From Aggregicoccus sp. 17bor-14 (GTDB taxonomy: Bacteria > Myxococcota > Myxococcia > Myxococcales > Myxococcaceae), in contig NZ_VJZZ01000002.1 in the NCBI RefSeq assembly GCF_009659535.1, positions 372,001 through 436,000 of the forward strand: 64,000 nt of DNA, written 5' to 3'. The notes under the pieces were generated by a model. The model did not search any database. It was not told the origin of the DNA and saw only the letters and a program-made list of their open reading frames with translations. Shown piece by piece: positions 44,188-51,489 of the stretch. Each line of letters opens with the position of its first letter. Positions within the stretch are counted from its first letter, which is position 1. A program made the translations under genes and the position numbers.

Positions 44188-45351
44188 TTGAGTGCTGAAG
44201 AGCGTGAGCGGACGGTGTCGGGCCCCCGCCAGGAGTGCTTCGACGACGCGCCGACCGACACCGAGGTCGAGGACGTGGGGCCGGGGGTTCCGGAGCGCAA
44301 GGCCCTGGACGCGGGGAAGCTGCGCATCGTCCCCAAGCCGCTCTCGGTGCGCCAGGCGCTCGACCTGGTGGACGCGGGCGACATCGCGCTCGCGCAGGAC
44401 TTCCCGCGCCTCGCGCTGTGGACGAGCCGGCAGAGGTCGCTGCTCGTCGAGTCCGTGCTTGTCGGGATTCCGCTGCCCGCCCTCTACTTCCACCAGGACA
44501 CGCAGGGCACGCTGCACGTGGTGGACGGCGTGCAGAGACTCACGGTGCTGCACCGCTTCGCGAAGGGGCTCGAGCCGCTCACGGAGCTCGAGTACTTCCC
44601 GGAGCTCTCCGGCAAGACCTTCGACACGCTGGACACCCAGTTCCGCCGCCGCTTCCAGGGGGCGCAGCTCGCCATCCACGTGCTCGAGCCCTCGACGCCG
44701 GACGAGGTGAAGTTCGACGTCTTCCGGCGCATCAACACGGGCGGCAGCCCACTCACCGCGCAGGAGATCCGCCACCTCATGGGGCGAAGCGGCTCGCGCG
44801 AGCTGCTCACGCGGCTCACCGCGCTGCCTTCGTTCGCGGAGGCCACCGGCGGCGCCTTCCAGAACGAGCGCCGCATGACCGACCGCGAGCTCGCGCTGCG
44901 CTTCTGCGCGTTCCGGGTGGCGTTCGATGAGTACCTCCCGTTTCCGGGCCTGGACGCGTTCCTCCTCGACTTCACGCGCCGCCTCGACGGTACGCACCCA
45001 CAGAAGCCCGCACTCACCGACGCGGAGCGCGAGGGGCTGGTGTCGGACTTCGACCGCGCGATGCGCAGTGCGACGGCAGTTTTCGGCGCGAGCGCGTTCC
45101 GCAAGTACCCGCCCGCTGCGACGAAGCCGGGGCCGCTGAACCGCGCGCTGTTCGAGAGCTGGGCAGTGGCGCTCGCGGACCACGCGCCCGAGGCGCTCGC
45201 GCCGCGCAGTGCGGAGATTTCCGCTGCCGCGCGAGCGCTCCTGGAGGACCCTGCCTACAGCGACGCCGTGAGTGTGAGCACCGGCGACGCACTGCGGGTG
45301 GCGCTGCGCTTCACACGGGCCCGTGAGATCCTGCAGCGGGAGACACCTTGA
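44188..45351 (+). CDS. DUF262 family protein (ParB/Srx nuclease-like fold)
   Basis: A 387-residue protein, first gene of a tight operon. The N-terminal half is a DUF262 domain: LWTSRQRSLLVESVLVGIPLPALYF, then VVDGVQRLTVL (D113, G114, Q116, R117; the usual DGQQR motif with Val for the first Gln), then FRRINTGGSPLTAQEIR (179-195). DUF262 domains occur in GmrSD, SspE and BrxU, where they use nucleotides and couple to nuclease action on modified phage DNA. The C-terminal ~150 residues are helical, with no HNH (DUF1524) domain, so a partner must supply any cutting. TTG 44188 is the start: GGAGG lies nine bases upstream, and no ATG fits. The stop overlaps the next gene's start. Confidence 0.88.
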   Translation: MSAEERERTVSGPRQECFDDAPTDTEVEDVGPGVPERKALDAGKLRIVPKPLSVRQALDLVDAGDIALAQDFPRLALWTSRQRSLLVESVLVGIPLPALYFHQDTQGTLHVVDGVQRLTVLHRFAKGLEPLTELEYFPELSGKTFDTLDTQFRRRFQGAQLAIHVLEPSTPDEVKFDVFRRINTGGSPLTAQEIRHLMGRSGSRELLTRLTALPSFAEATGGAFQNERRMTDRELALRFCAFRVAFDEYLPFPGLDAFLLDFTRRLDGTHPQKPALTDAEREGLVSDFDRAMRSATAVFGASAFRKYPPAATKPGPLNRALFESWAVALADHAPEALAPRSAEISAAARALLEDPAYSDAVSVSTGDALRVALRFTRAREILQRETP

Positions 45352-46475
45352 TCAAGACGCTGGAGATTGCCGGCTTCAAGCGCTTCGCCTCCGCCTCGGT
45401 GGAGTTCGCACCGCTCACCGTCCTCTCGGGACTCAACGGCGCGGGGAAGACCTCGGTCATCCACACGCTGCTCATGCTGCGCGAGGCGAGCCTCTTCAAC
45501 GCGCGCTCCGTCTCGCTCAACGGCCCTTACGGCCTCGAGCTGGGCAGCGTGCAGGACGTGCTCAACCTGAACACCGCCGCGGGCTCCAATGAGATCCGCG
45601 TGACGGTGCGCCCGGGCGAGGGCGAGGAGGAGCGCGCGCTCTACATCTTCGACGCCCGCGACGAGGAGCTGCTGCACCTGCCCATCAAGGAGCGCCCGCA
45701 CCCGGTGCCCACGGTGCTCGGCGGCCCCGCGCGCGGCTTCGGCTACCTGTCGGCGGAGCGGCTGGGACCGCGTGACGTGCTGCCCGCGAGCGCGCGCCCC
45801 GAGGACGACCTGGGCGTGGGCGTGCGCGGGGAGTACTGCGCGCAGGTGCTCGCGCGCCACGGGCTGAAGGAGAAGGTGCCCGTGGGCAGGCGGCACCCCT
45901 CGCTCACGGACGACGCGGATGCGTTCCTCAAGTACCAGGTCGAGGCCTGGCTCTCGGACATCGCGCGGCCCACCGAGATCGAGTCCGTGGCCTTCCCGAA
46001 CACCTCGGTGACGGCGATGCGCTTCCGCGCGCCCGGCGGCGACTGGGTGCGCGCGCCGAACATGGGCTTCGGGCTGAGCTACAGCCTGCCCGTGGTGGTG
46101 GCGGGGCTCGTCGCGCCGCAGCGGGACGCGCTGCTCATCGTGGAGAACCCCGAGGCACACCTGCACCCGGCGGGGCAGTCGCGCATGGGGACCTTCCTCG
46201 CCACCGTGGCGGCGACGGGAGTCCAGGTGCTGGTGGAGACGCACAGCGACCACGTGCTCAACGGCATCCGGCGCGCGATTGGCGAGCTCGGGCTGCTGAA
46301 GCCCGAGGACGCCCTGGTGCACTTCTTCGACGCGAAGGAGGACGGCGAGCCGCGCAACACGCCGCTGCGCTTCTCGGCTTCGGGTGGGCTGAACGAGTGG
46401 CCCAAGCGCTTCTTCGACCAGTACCAGGTGGACGTCGCCGTGCTCGCGAAGGTGCGCCGCGGGGCGGTGAAGTAG
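45348..46475 (+). CDS. AAA ATPase with DUF3696 C-terminus (COG4938-like)
   Basis: A 375-residue ATPase of the SMC/RecF-like type. The Walker A motif GLNGAGKTS (28-36) follows MIKTLEIAGFKRF; Walker B is LLIVENPEAHLHP (E266), followed by the D-loop-like VLVETHSDHVLNGIRRAI. The C-terminus FDQYQVDVAVLAKVRRG is the DUF3696 end. Such ATPases are found with DUF262 or nuclease partners in accessory regions; overcoming-lysogenisation-type ATPases are distant relatives, but there is no TOPRIM domain here. The start TTG overlaps the DUF262 stop (TTGA), so translation is coupled. Confidence 0.88.
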   Translation: MIKTLEIAGFKRFASASVEFAPLTVLSGLNGAGKTSVIHTLLMLREASLFNARSVSLNGPYGLELGSVQDVLNLNTAAGSNEIRVTVRPGEGEEERALYIFDARDEELLHLPIKERPHPVPTVLGGPARGFGYLSAERLGPRDVLPASARPEDDLGVGVRGEYCAQVLARHGLKEKVPVGRRHPSLTDDADAFLKYQVEAWLSDIARPTEIESVAFPNTSVTAMRFRAPGGDWVRAPNMGFGLSYSLPVVVAGLVAPQRDALLIVENPEAHLHPAGQSRMGTFLATVAATGVQVLVETHSDHVLNGIRRAIGELGLLKPEDALVHFFDAKEDGEPRNTPLRFSASGGLNEWPKRFFDQYQVDVAVLAKVRRGAVK

Positions 46476-46478
46476 CGG

Positions 46479-47480
46479 ATGCGCTTCGTCCTCGAGGAGT
46501 CCAGCTGGAGCTGGGACGGCAGGGACCGCGAAGGGTTCATCGAGCGGCTCGAGCAGCTGCTCGACCGCACGGACGTGGCGCGCGAGCGCGGTGAGCCCTT
46601 CGCGGCGAGCACCGAGCTGCTGCGCCAGCAGGTGCACGGCCACGAGCTCTCGGACCTGCTCTTCAACACGGAGCTGCCGCTCTCGCTCCCGCCCGAGGTG
46701 GGCCAGCGCGTGGCGGCCCTGTTCGGCTCGCTCACGCTGTGGGACGAGCAGGAGGCATGGCCCGGGCTGGAGGTGCGCATCGGTGGCGCGGAGCCGGTGA
46801 TCTCGGTCTCGGGGGCGTTTGCGCATGCGCGCACGGAGGCGGGAGTGGCCACGGCGTGCCTGCCCCTGCCCGGAGCGCTGAAGGGGCCGCAGGACGTGGT
46901 GATGGAGGGGAGGGCGACGCAGGTCCACTTCGTGGTGGACGAGGCGACGCACCGGGCCTTCTTCCGCCACGCGCTCGAGCTGGAGCGCGTGGACGAGCGG
47001 GGTCTGGAGGCGCTCGCCGAGCACGCCTTTCCGGACCTGTACTTCTACGACGGCGTGTGGCGTGGCCTCGGCGAGATGGAGGGCGGCTACGCGCGCGTGC
47101 GCGAGGCGCTGCACCAGGTGCTCGGCGTGCTGGATGACCACGGCGCGTGGGTGTTCACGGACGAGAGTGGCCGGCTCTCACGCAACGACCCCGCGCCGAG
47201 CGATGCCGAGCGCCAGCCGGTGACGAACCAGCTCGTGGGCCGGCGCTTCCAGCAGTGGGGCTGCGAGGTCGCGCCCGAGAAGCCCAACGTGCGCGAGGAC
47301 GGAGCCTGCCGGCGAGCACGGGAGCGCGAGCTGGAGGGCCGCACGCTCTACTGCGAGTGGCACTACAAGTTCGAGCGCCACACCAACCGGCTGCACTTGC
47401 ATCCGCCGGTGCCCGAGTCAGGAAACCGAGTGGTGGTGGCCATCCTCCACGGCCACCTGCCGCTGCCCGGCGACGGGTAA
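46479..47480 (+). CDS. Unrecognised 333-residue protein, third gene of DUF262-ATPase operon
   Basis: I do not recognise this family. It starts 3 bases after the ATPase stop, so it belongs to the operon. The N-terminal half is mixed alpha/beta, with acidic stretches. Residues ~180-225 contain LYFYDGVWRGLGEMEGGYARVREALHQVLGVLDDHGAWVF. The C-terminal ~80 residues are a compact block with conserved-looking aromatic/His spacing: TLYCEWHYKFERHTNRLHLH, then RVVVAILHGHLPLP. A similar W-H-x-K...N-R-x-H...H-L pattern occurs, as far as I remember, at the ends of uncharacterised proteins in defence loci. It could be the effector or the sensor of the operon; this is inference. Confidence 0.75.
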   Translation: MRFVLEESSWSWDGRDREGFIERLEQLLDRTDVARERGEPFAASTELLRQQVHGHELSDLLFNTELPLSLPPEVGQRVAALFGSLTLWDEQEAWPGLEVRIGGAEPVISVSGAFAHARTEAGVATACLPLPGALKGPQDVVMEGRATQVHFVVDEATHRAFFRHALELERVDERGLEALAEHAFPDLYFYDGVWRGLGEMEGGYARVREALHQVLGVLDDHGAWVFTDESGRLSRNDPAPSDAERQPVTNQLVGRRFQQWGCEVAPEKPNVREDGACRRARERELEGRTLYCEWHYKFERHTNRLHLHPPVPESGNRVVVAILHGHLPLPGDG

Positions 47481-47894
47481 GGCGCAGCAGCGCTACTCCG
47501 ACTCAATGCTGTGCTCTGCGGACGCCTATTCGCTAGCGCGTGAAAGCATCCAACTGCGCTAAGGACACTGACTACGTCAAACTGCGGTGCGTCGGCCAAC
47601 CGCAACCCCCAGAGGCGCTTCGCCAGCGTACTCATATGCCTTTGAGAGCCCCAGCAAGACCGTCTCCCGATGGCGTCCTGCCCTACTCGGATTACGCAGC
47701 CGCTAGGAGCATGAGCGGGCCTGTTTGTTCTATGGTTCCACCGAGTTCACGTTCGATCTTCTCTCCACGGGATGGTCGGTAGTGCCCCCCAACCAGTCGC
47801 GCAGAGCAAGAGCTGCCCTATCTATCCCGTGTACCTCACCCCGAAGGTCATCTCCTCTCGAAAGCCGACAGGGATGTCGGTCGGAGCACCAACA
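47481..47894. other. Low-GC junction region before SHOCT gene
   Basis: 414 bases whose base composition falls clearly below that of the flanking genes. Short frames on both strands show no start signal or familiar domain. It marks the upstream edge of the AT-richer segment. No attC, direct-repeat att pair or tRNA end was recognised. Confidence 0.45.
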
Positions 47895-48176
47895 ATGGCA
47901 AATAGCTCATTTAAGCGAACCATGATCGGCGCCGTCATCTTCGTTATCGGAGCTGCAATGGCAACCGAAAGCGATATCGCGCTGCTGGGAGCTCTAGTTG
48001 CTCTCGGAGGGCTCGGCTATGGCCTGAAGCCACTAGCAGATGAGTTTGTCAAGAATCGAGACAAAACGCGGGCTCAAGCCGAGTTGCTGACATGCAAAAA
48101 GTTATTCGACGAGGGCATCCTGAGCCAGAGTGAGTACGACCGGAAAACGGAGGAACTAAAGAAACTCATCTTTTAG
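47895..48176 (+). CDS. Small membrane protein with SHOCT domain
   Basis: A 93-residue protein. Two hydrophobic stretches (residues ~10-25 and ~29-45) are followed by a polar helix and a C-terminal SHOCT motif, CKKLFDEGILSQSEYDRKTEELKKLIF, a short domain usually at protein ends that mediates oligomerisation. Codon use and base composition are clearly different from the core genes around it. ATG 47895 is chosen because GGAG lies eight bases upstream; a longer frame to 47772 lacks a ribosome binding site. Its role is unknown; small TM-SHOCT proteins occur beside defence and mobile genes. Confidence 0.7.
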   Translation: MANSSFKRTMIGAVIFVIGAAMATESDIALLGALVALGGLGYGLKPLADEFVKNRDKTRAQAELLTCKKLFDEGILSQSEYDRKTEELKKLIF

Positions 48177-48246: not shown

Positions 48247-49597
48247 TCAGAACAGGCCGCCCCCTGTTCGTCCAAAGCCGAAGCCAATGCCTGAGCCATA
48301 TAGCGAGTGAGGCAACGATGCTCGCTCGTAGAGTTTAGGTAGTTCAGTCTTTGGGTCGGGCCGGACGTTCGAAGCGCCCTTTCGGATGAATAATTCATTC
48401 GCTTTGCCCGAATAGGGACGGTCATCTCCTGTCTCGACTCTGACCATAATTACACGATGGCCCGAGACGCCGACGAGCTCGATATTGAAGGGGGGGCACA
48501 GGCTTCACCCGCTCTCTAAAGAGTGAGTCCAAGTAGGCCAAGTACCTGTCTTCGTCTTCAGGTTTATCTCCCTGGATGACTCGGCGAAAGGTTTGCTCGC
48601 CCTCCGGCTCACCATCGTTTCTGACGCCAATGTACAGGCGCCCTCCCACGGTGTTGGCGAAGGCAATAACGGTCGCAATAAGCTCAGACTCCTTGTCGCT
48701 TTTGGGGTTGACGAAGGGCTTGTATTCGACACGATCGTTCTCTCCGTCCGCCAAGTCGCGTTCAGCTTGCTCGGATGGGGGAAGTTGCCTCGCCGGATCT
48801 ACTAGAGTCGCTCCAGGAGATAGGTTTGCCATGCCCATGAGGTCTCGGCTGGAATGTACGAGATAGACGTCAGCACCTCGGGCGTCGACTGGGGTCTCCC
48901 AGCTAAAAGCTGAAGGCGCTGGCCTCAATGGAGGCAGCACAAGTCGACCCGTATCCGTGGCAATCGCGGCTTGAATTTCAAGCTCGTCATTCTCGCTCGA
49001 GGAATGCACCGTCCCCGACAGTCGATTGCCCTCCCATCGGACGCTGCCGAGCATTCCCCTCGTATCCGGAACGACGACTAGCATCTCACCGAGATGGCGT
49101 GCTTGCCCATCTCGTTGAACTAGTCGTTCGCCCCATACCCAATCTTCGACTGCTCGATGAAAAGAGGGAAACGGAGGCAGACCGTGGGCTACAGCGACAC
49201 CAGAGGTGAGTCCGTGATCGTGACGTCGACTCTGCTGGCTTGCCTCAAGCACCCACTCAGACCAGCCGGAGAGGCTGTCCGAACGACTAACTCGCCGTTC
49301 GATTCTCCCGTAGTCGAACGAGCCGAAGTTAAAGCTGCCGGTCCCATCAGTGGGGTGCACTAGCGCAGACCGCAAGCTCGGCACGGCCTGTTCTATGGGC
49401 AGCCACACCTCGCGGAGGCGGAGTTCGCCGTAGTCCCGGCCTTCCCGCGGCTCGCGATGCTCGTCAACAAAAAGCCAGCGCGCAGTAAGGAATCCCTTTG
49501 CGCCTTCTGCCCAAGTCACTAGCGCACCCAGTGGCGCGCGATTCCGACGGACAAAAGTTTGCTCAAGCTGAGAGACCGCCTCAAGAAGCGAATCCAT
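48247..49597 (-). pseudogene. Schlafen/AlbA_2 domain protein, frameshifted in a G7 run
   Basis: The intact first frame runs from ATG 49597 for 391 codons to 48422. Residues 1 to ~280 are unassigned. Residues ~283-330 carry NDRVEYKPFVNPKSDKESELIATVIAFANT, then GGRLYIGVRNDGEP, an AlbA_2 (Schlafen) domain (E291 corresponds to the family's EFK/EYK acidic residue). At 48490-48496 a run of seven G (seven C in the mRNA) shifts the frame. With six, the domain continues as FNIELVGVSGHRVIMVRVETG and NELFIRKGASNVRP, to a stop at 48247, giving about 449 residues. The C-terminal part thus exists in the alternative frame. It could be a pseudogene, a phase-variable gene, a programmed frameshift or a sequencing error. 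AlbA_2 proteins are RNA-binding or RNase-like and occur in phage defence. Confidence 0.78.
48490..48496. repeat. Homopolymer G7 run at the frameshift point
   Basis: Seven G residues on the plus strand. Removing one base restores the AlbA_2 reading frame across the whole domain. Confidence 0.8.
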
Positions 49598-49812
49598 ATG
49601 TACCTAGATCCTTCAGAGCAGAAAATCCCTGAAGCGGGAAAACGTTGCTCCGGCATGTTCCTAGTCACGAACTGACGTAGACCTTTTGCGATGGCAGATC
49701 GCGTCTAGCGTCTAGTCGCGAGGTTGCACGAGGGAGAGGCAATTCTCGGGCTGACAATCTCGCAGTTCGAAAATTTCGCGACAGGCCGGCCGGCGAGTAG
49801 CGAATGTAGCCA

Positions 49813-51489
49813 TTACGCACCAGAGTTGGCGACGCCACATGCGCTCAACAGCGCTTCTAAGAATGCCTTCGCATACTTCAGGTCGTCTTCAAGAAGTCCT
49901 TTACGGACCAAATCGAACGCGCGATTCTTGAAATTCGGCGCATCTTTCTTTGGCAGAAACCTCTTCCCTTTGAGAACGCCCAAGACGCCAAGCGCTTGAT
50001 CAACTTCATCGATGATGCGGTCTGGGTAGAAGCGTTCCACTCCACGGAACGTATCATCGAGATGCGGATTCGCGCTGCTCTCGTCCCAGACAACCACATG
50101 TGCGCAGTCGAGCCCGTGGAAAAGTTTCTCAATATCCTTCTTCCTCGACAGTGAATCCCAGTCGAGAACGACGACGATCGGTGCCGTCTTCAGTCGGGTT
50201 CGAATCGCAGGCATGTGGGTTTTGAGATATTTGATCATGTCGTCGATGCCTCCCGTCGCTCCACCGCCTTGGAGCTCCTCGAGGGTTGCGACACGAAAGA
50301 CGCTGTCGGGGGCCGAAATCCGAAGTGCGGCTTCGATAAAGGCTTTGTCGTGCTTGCCTTCGACAAAGATCACGGGGTCGAGCGGGAACGACAGAATAGG
50401 ATGCACCCATCTGGAGATCCCCGTGCGAGCAGCTTCGTGCAAAGCCTCCAGTTTGGACGTCGGGGCCGATAGTGAACTAGCTCCGTCTTCATGCGAGACC
50501 AAAATGGGTTGGTCTGAGTACTGGAGGACTAGGTCCGAGTGCGTAGTCGAAAAGATTTGAAGGCGCCCATTCTCCTCGCTGGATACATCCGCAAGGTATC
50601 GCGCGACCTGTGCTTCCAGAGCCGTATGTAGGGATGACTCGGGCTCTTCCAGGGCCCACACGGTGGCTTGTTTCCAGCCAAACTTACGGTTGTAGTCTCG
50701 GTCGATCAGCGCCAGCGTCTCAAGCATCAACAGGCTTTGGATTCCGGAGCCTTGAAACTTGTCGTCGGTTTCATGTTCGCCGCTGCCAAGTCGATAGCCA
50801 AAAGCAAAGACCATGTCCTGCAGAGAACGAGGCGTGGCAAGCTTGACCTCCCCAATCCCAGGACATGCCTCGCGCACATGCTTGCTCAAGTCCTGAGTGA
50901 GCGAAACGGATATCTGCTCTAAAGCCTGAAAGGCCTTTTCTTGATCAATCGTTTTGCCCGCCATACGTCGGACTATGACGTCCCGCAGTGCGTGGTGTTC
51001 TGAACGAATAATTTCAAGCGGCAGGACTCTGTTGGGGATGTATCGAAAGGAAATCAGCGACAGGAAACGATTTATGTATTCTCGTTCGTCCAGGTCGTTG
51101 ATTTCTTTCCCGTTGAGTTCCAAGCTTGGTGTTAGTGAGTCGAGGGTCCACTCCTTCGCGATCGAAAAGGTACTTCCCCCAAGAAAAGACTCGACGTTCT
51201 TGATGGTCTTTTGGAACTTGAAATTGCTAGGGAGTGAGAAGTTTAGCGCGACTCTAATTCTCTTCTTCTTGCCCTTGGGGGCATTCGGGCCTCGGTGATA
51301 GTCAGACTCAATGTTGATATTGAGGTTTTGATCCGACTGGCCGGTGAAGAAGAGGTTTAGGGCGCGAAGTACATTCGACTTTCCAGAGTTGTTGAGGCCC
51401 GCAATGGCATTCAAGCTCCCTAGGTGCTCAAGCTTTCCCTTGTTGATTGAGCGGAAGCCGCTGATGTCGATGCCGGTAATAAGCTTCAC
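49813..51489 (-). CDS. OLD-family ATP-dependent endonuclease
   Basis: A 558-residue protein with an N-terminal ABC-type ATPase and a C-terminal TOPRIM domain. The ATPase has Walker A GLNNSGKSN (31-39), Walker B VWALEEPESS (277 onward) and FSTTHSDLVL. The TOPRIM has VIFVEGKHDKAFI (E377) and VVVLDWDS (D443, D445), the metal-binding acidic residues of OLD nucleases. This is the architecture of GajA and other class 1 or 2 OLD enzymes, which cut DNA in phage defence. There is no UvrD-like partner next to it; the broken Schlafen gene is downstream on the same strand. Base composition is low-GC, as in neighbouring accessory genes. Confidence 0.88.
   Translation of the reverse strand: MKLITGIDISGFRSINKGKLEHLGSLNAIAGLNNSGKSNVLRALNLFFTGQSDQNLNINIESDYHRGPNAPKGKKKRIRVALNFSLPSNFKFQKTIKNVESFLGGSTFSIAKEWTLDSLTPSLELNGKEINDLDEREYINRFLSLISFRYIPNRVLPLEIIRSEHHALRDVIVRRMAGKTIDQEKAFQALEQISVSLTQDLSKHVREACPGIGEVKLATPRSLQDMVFAFGYRLGSGEHETDDKFQGSGIQSLLMLETLALIDRDYNRKFGWKQATVWALEEPESSLHTALEAQVARYLADVSSEENGRLQIFSTTHSDLVLQYSDQPILVSHEDGASSLSAPTSKLEALHEAARTGISRWVHPILSFPLDPVIFVEGKHDKAFIEAALRISAPDSVFRVATLEELQGGGATGGIDDMIKYLKTHMPAIRTRLKTAPIVVVLDWDSLSRKKDIEKLFHGLDCAHVVVWDESSANPHLDDTFRGVERFYPDRIIDEVDQALGVLGVLKGKRFLPKKDAPNFKNRAFDLVRKGLLEDDLKYAKAFLEALLSACGVANSGA

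What the first reader, a model, noticed from the sequence alone, without database searches (positions are those of the whole stretch)
48247..49597. Schlafen/AlbA_2 gene broken or switched by a G7 run
Removing one base from G7 (48490-48496) restores a domain that is otherwise cut in half, and both halves match the AlbA_2 fold. A homopolymer of seven at the break point fits three explanations: sequencing error, phase-variable expression, or programmed frameshifting. Phase-variable defence genes would be notable.
Basis: seen in the sequence. Interest (0 to 1): 0.6.

Follow-up and report, generated by a model that had tools for sequence, protein, structure and literature searches.

The report
Frameshifted AlbA_2 gene at C7 run
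A bacterial gene for a probable defence-related (Schlafen/AlbA_2-type) protein is cut in two by one surplus base in a run of seven Cs; intact relatives show this is most likely an ordinary loss-of-function frameshift rather than a designed on/off switch.

Summary
On the minus strand (49597→48247), ORF 48422-49597 carries AlbA_2 (PF04326) model positions 1-72, and the next frame (48247-48492) carries 73-116. The frames meet exactly at a C7 tract (G7 on the + strand, 48490-48496). Read through, the domain is complete and scores like intact relatives (68 bits vs 65-80). Four relatives in the same bacterial family (49% and about 27% identity) are intact single ORFs, and none has a homopolymer at that codon. 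In the nearest one the gene lies in an overlapping hsdM-hsdS-hsdR-AlbA_2-YgjP type I restriction operon.

The "switch" reading gets no positive support. The tract is only seven bases long and not conserved. G/C runs of seven are depleted in this genome, and the site has no programmed-frameshift anatomy apart from CCC-C. Systematic homopolymer miscalling is also unlikely: about 200 G/C runs of six or more in clearly coding DNA (1.58 Mb) show no intragenic frameshift.

Best reading: a recent single-base slippage mutation that inactivates an orphan, horizontally acquired defence-type gene. An isolated consensus error remains possible, and random reversible slippage cannot be excluded without reads. 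Interest is low, with a small residual for phase variation; a G6/G7 precedent exists in gonococcal NgoAV hsdS.

The parts
48422..49597 (-). Frame 1 ORF, 391 aa: N-terminal ~280-residue region without a Pfam match plus the first half of AlbA_2; the ~24 residues after the C7 run are out of frame relative to homologues
48503..48742 (-). AlbA_2 domain, first part (PF04326 model 1-72), with the E...E.K and ..D residues that align to Schlafen family proteins
48490..48496 (-). C7 run on the coding strand (G7 on +): point where the reading frame of the homology changes
48247..48492 (-). Second frame, 81 codons: rest of the gene. It has no start of its own before the homology; the frame is open from about 48504
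48361..48489 (-). AlbA_2 domain, second part (PF04326 model 73-116)
49609..49613 (-). AAGGA, candidate ribosome-binding site 12-16 nt upstream of the ATG; initiation signals look intact
   Evidence: sequence read directly
49813..51489 (-). Upstream neighbour on the same strand: OLD-like protein (AAA_15 ATPase, weak DUF3226/TOPRIM-like C-terminus), 558 aa, intact; not linked to the gene in the relatives checked
44188..47480 (+). NsnA-NsnB-NsnC (PADLOC) candidate defence genes on the other strand, full-length matches

Best explanation
This is one gene of an orphan, probably horizontally acquired AlbA_2/Schlafen-type protein (N-terminal domain of unknown fold plus C-terminal AlbA_2 domain). A single-base expansion by replication slippage in a C run took it out of frame. 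The ribosome makes a 391-residue product that keeps the putative catalytic residues but loses the last third of the AlbA_2 domain, so it is most likely inactive. Everything else in the gene is open and conserved, so the mutation is recent. Shown: split domain, exact location, intact relatives without the run. Inferred: that the base is real, that the product is inactive, that no regulated switching occurs.
For: Split and restored domain. Four intact relatives, no tract at the site. No other stop or frameshift in 1351 bp, and the second frame is as conserved (54%) as the first (49%), so decay is recent. The tract is the only G/C run over 5 in the gene. About 178 G6/C6 runs and 15-23 runs of seven or more in clearly coding DNA keep frame; every apparent frame change at a run read by eye is a gene boundary. 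GC is 54-61% in a 73% GC genome, and the gene is absent from nearly all relatives, which fits an acquired gene.
Against: No reads or second isolate were available, so the base itself is unverified. Composition could not classify the frame in this low-GC island, so the error survey does not cover such regions well. Retention of an otherwise perfect ORF could also mean that the off state is temporary.
Confidence: 0.55

Rival explanations
1. Consensus or sequencing error in the assembly: the real tract is shorter and the gene is intact.
For: A homopolymer is the commonest place for such errors. The rest of the gene is perfectly open, and all relatives are intact.
Against: No intragenic frameshift at about 200 other G/C runs of six or more, including 15-23 of seven or more, in 1.58 Mb of the same assembly. 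The assembly is large-contig and 99.95% complete. For runs of seven alone, zero broken out of 23 bounds the rate only below about 12%.
Confidence: 0.22
2. Phase variation: the C7 tract changes length by slipped-strand mispairing at a rate high enough to switch the protein on and off in the population.
For: A one-base change toggles a full-length protein. Tracts of 6-9 G vary among strains in the type I specificity gene hsdS of gonococcal NgoAV (PMC9577141), so seven is not too short in principle. The nearest relative of this gene lies in a type I restriction operon.
Against: No tract in any of four relatives. G/C runs of seven are depleted in the sampled genome, 84 seen versus 307 expected from a first-order Markov model. 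The break lies at about 82% of the gene rather than near the start. No variation data.
Confidence: 0.14
3. Programmed +1 ribosomal frameshifting (or transcriptional slippage) at CCC-CCC-C makes some full-length protein.
For: CCC-C is a known +1-prone site: up to about 1% when placed at the second codon in E. coli, higher without m1G37 (PMC4519876). The direction needed is +1.
Against: The motif is not conserved in any relative. There is no stop codon at the slip site (frame 0 runs about 24 codons on) and no Shine-Dalgarno-like sequence just upstream on reading the sequence. Relatives make the protein from one frame.
Confidence: 0.04
4. The truncated 391-aa product is itself the functional form.
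For: It retains the E...E.K and D residues aligned to the Schlafen family. Truncated HsdS1 of NgoAV is functional (PMC9577141).
Against: It loses conserved model positions 73-116, including the FxRxGxxxxRPDP region present in all relatives, from within a domain rather than between domains.
Confidence: 0.05

Closest known systems
SLFN_AlbA_2 domain proteins (Pfam PF04326)
   Same: Joined frames match the whole model (1-116 of 118, 68.2 bits), as do the intact relatives
   Different: The window copy is split; the N-terminal ~280 residues match no Pfam or NCBIfam family
AlbA_2 gene within a type I restriction-modification operon (G001, L018)
   Same: Closest homologue found, 50% identity along the read-through protein
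   Different: In G001 it overlaps hsdR and a YgjP metallopeptidase gene; in the window it is an orphan beside an OLD-like ATPase, and no HsdR above the family cut-off is found in the genome
Phase-variable hsdS of NgoAV (Neisseria gonorrhoeae)
   Same: A G7 tract truncates a restriction-system gene; one base fewer fuses the halves (PMC9577141)
   Different: There the tract varies among 92 strains and both forms can be active; here there is one genome, a different gene, and relatives without a tract

Membership tests
SLFN_AlbA_2 (PF04326) | Match above the curated cut-off (25.3 bits) | tested here: met
   Frame 1 alone 41.3 bits, read-through 68.2 bits; second part alone 19.5, below cut-off
SLFN_AlbA_2 (PF04326) | Complete domain in one reading frame | tested here: not met
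   Split at model 72/73 by the C7 frameshift; met in all four relatives
Schlafen-type nuclease | Acidic residues of the active site conserved | tested here: inconclusive
   E...E.K and a D align with human SLFN12 at E 0.07 only and are largely conserved in the five sequences; activity unknown
Phase-variable (contingency) gene | Tract length varies between cells or isolates | not testable with these tools
   No reads; no genome of the same genus among the relatives listed
Phase-variable (contingency) gene | Tract kept at the same place in relatives, or tracts enriched in the genome | tested here: not met
   No tract at the site in four relatives; G/C runs of seven depleted about 3.6-fold against a Markov model
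Programmed +1 frameshift gene | Conserved slippery site with stimulatory signals | tested here: not met
   Site not conserved; no stop codon at the site
Type I restriction-modification accessory gene | Linked to hsdM/hsdS/hsdR | tested here: not met
   Linked in G001 only; no hsd genes among the immediate neighbours in the window and no HsdR above cut-off in the genome

The most novel reading that the evidence does not exclude
The C7 tract is a genuine reversible switch for an AlbA_2/Schlafen-type defence protein, giving a mixed on/off population in a non-pathogenic environmental bacterium.
Probability: 0.12. Interest if true: 0.45.

Novelty: new member of a known kind. Interest (0 to 1): 0.15.

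Why it matters
As it stands it matters little: an otherwise intact defence-type gene disabled (or miscalled) by one base. If the tract were shown to vary, it would extend phase variation from restriction and methylation genes to a Schlafen/AlbA_2-type protein and suggest bet-hedging against a costly defence. The side result, a two-domain AlbA_2 family with one member built into a type I restriction operon with overlapping genes, is a modest lead on what these proteins do.

Tried and rejected
Single-sequence AlphaFold2 of the read-through protein gave mean pLDDT 34, so no fold search was run; relatives fetched through the genome search are not on the list of sequences allowed for folding. The genome-contig scan found only weak AlbA_2-only relatives. 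Viral contig scans and phage and plasmid searches found no full-length relative. A first codon model trained on all long ORFs was contaminated by spurious high-GC ORFs (GC3 0.75) and was discarded for one trained on high-GC3 ORFs (GC3 0.95). Apparent frame changes at other runs were read by eye and are gene ends and starts, not frameshifts. Promoter and terminator scans found nothing above chance. Co-inheritance with the OLD-like neighbour was tested and not seen. Paper searches for AlbA_2 with type I restriction, and for the Nsn system, gave nothing direct.

Full report
WHAT IS THERE. The tract G7 lies at 48490-48496 and is C7 on the coding (minus) strand. ORF 48422-49597(-) encodes 391 residues. 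Pfam finds SLFN_AlbA_2 (PF04326) model positions 1-72 at residues 286-365 (E 2.6e-10). In the neighbouring frame, 48247-48492(-), 81 codons match model positions 73-116 (E 1.5e-3). The second frame is closed by a stop just upstream of the run, so the two frames overlap only around the break. Reading through at the junction gives a 449-residue protein whose AlbA_2 match is complete (1-116 of 118, 68.2 bits), inside the range of intact relatives (65.3-79.9 bits).

RELATIVES. A search of 60 related genomes found one close homologue, in G001 (same family, another genus): 49% identity to frame 1 and 54% to frame 2, both in one frame of a single 441-aa ORF. A two-row profile over 145 genomes of the order found three more full-length relatives, G116, G106 and G120, about 27% identical and all intact. 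Wider searches (class, phylum) added only one partial match. At the codons of the break the relatives read GTC CCT TTC, TTT CCT AGC, CTG CCG AAA and ATT CCC CAG, so none has a homopolymer there. The read-through protein aligns to the G001 protein without a gap at the junction. The ancestral state is therefore one continuous gene, and the break is an indel in the run.

AGE OF THE BREAK. Apart from the run, the gene has no stop or frameshift over 1351 bp. The second piece is no less conserved than the first (54% vs 49%), and its codon-position GC pattern resembles that of the first piece, whereas the out-of-frame tail of frame 1 does not. The ATG is preceded by AAGGA. All this says the break is recent, or not real.

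IS THE ASSEMBLY ERROR-PRONE AT HOMOPOLYMERS? I sampled 1.58 Mb of the same genome and scored reading frames on both sides of G/C runs with a codon model trained on high-GC3 ORFs. With 40-codon windows, 178 runs of six and 15 of seven kept frame. With 60-codon windows, 23 runs of seven or more kept frame. Eight of the eleven apparent changes, and all of those, were read by eye; each is the end of one gene and the start of another. The other three apparent changes at runs of six (W 53804, L081 6284, L032 9446) have a stop of the left-hand frame 10-13 bases beyond the start of the run with the right-hand frame already open, the pattern of overlapping or adjacent genes; these were not read further. 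Systematic miscalling is therefore unlikely. An isolated error is still possible, because the bound for runs of seven is weak (about 12%) and the low-GC island itself was not classifiable with this model.

IS IT A SWITCH? The genome holds 350 runs of exactly seven G or C, so the tract is not special. In the sample, runs of seven are depleted (84 seen, 307 expected under a first-order Markov model), and a C7 or G7 arises in 14% of codon-order shuffles of the gene. Phase variation needs tract-length variation, which cannot be tested here. A close precedent does exist: in Neisseria gonorrhoeae NgoAV, a polyG tract of 6-9 G truncates or fuses the type I specificity gene hsdS (PMC9577141; see also PMC6789123). 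For programmed frameshifting, CCC-C is known to be +1-prone, up to about 1% at the second codon in E. coli (PMC4519876), but the site is not conserved and I saw no stop codon or Shine-Dalgarno-like stimulator at it.

CONTEXT AND FUNCTION. The stretch from about 47.5 to 51.5 kb has 48-61% GC against 73% for the window. It holds the split gene, an intact OLD-like AAA_15 protein of 558 aa upstream on the same strand, and a small ORF. NsnA-NsnB-NsnC candidates (PADLOC, full-length matches) lie next to it on the other strand at 44188-47480. In G001 the homologue is the fourth gene of an overlapping hsdM-hsdS-hsdR-AlbA_2-YgjP operon. The window copy is an orphan: no HsdR above the family cut-off is found in its genome, and the OLD-like neighbour has no strong relative in 35 related genomes, G001 included. 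The residues E...E.K and D, which align weakly to human SLFN12 (E 0.07), are in the part that is still translated. A nucleic-acid-acting defence role is therefore an inference from domain and context, not a result.

VERDICT. Observation confirmed. The most likely explanation is a real, recent, single-base inactivation of an acquired AlbA_2 gene (0.55), followed by an isolated consensus error (0.22), phase variation (0.14), functional truncation (0.05) and programmed frameshifting (0.04). Raw reads would settle most of this. Interest 0.15.

Noticed in passing
L001:1501-1520 (G000:C3:273216-273235): A G20 tract, by far the longest in the genome, lies just after a lipobox-like LSGC in a predicted lipoprotein (polyglycine linker). 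It is a much better candidate for a slippage-prone locus, or an assembly doubt, than the C7 tract.
   Followed up: partly
L018:7921-16054 (G001): A type I restriction operon with overlapping genes hsdM-hsdS-hsdR followed by an intact AlbA_2 gene and a YgjP-like metallopeptidase gene.
   Followed up: partly
44188-47480: NsnA, NsnB and NsnC PADLOC candidates (GmrSD_N-like, AAA_15 and an unannotated protein) in one operon on the + strand; no paper found under those names.
   Followed up: no
49813-51489: OLD-like ATPase with weak DUF3226 (TOPRIM-like) C-terminus, best PADLOC match AriA; no strong homologue in 35 related genomes.
   Followed up: partly
47772-48176: Small + strand ORF (134 aa) with a hydrophobic stretch and a weak SHOCT-like C-terminus beside the split gene.
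   Followed up: no
G000 sample, 1.58 Mb: Runs of seven or more G or C are depleted three- to eight-fold against a first-order Markov expectation in this 73% GC genome.
   Followed up: partly
L014:3346-4236: A reverse transcriptase gene (RVT_1; the whole ORF is in L019) lies beside the AlbA_2 homologue in G116.
   Followed up: no
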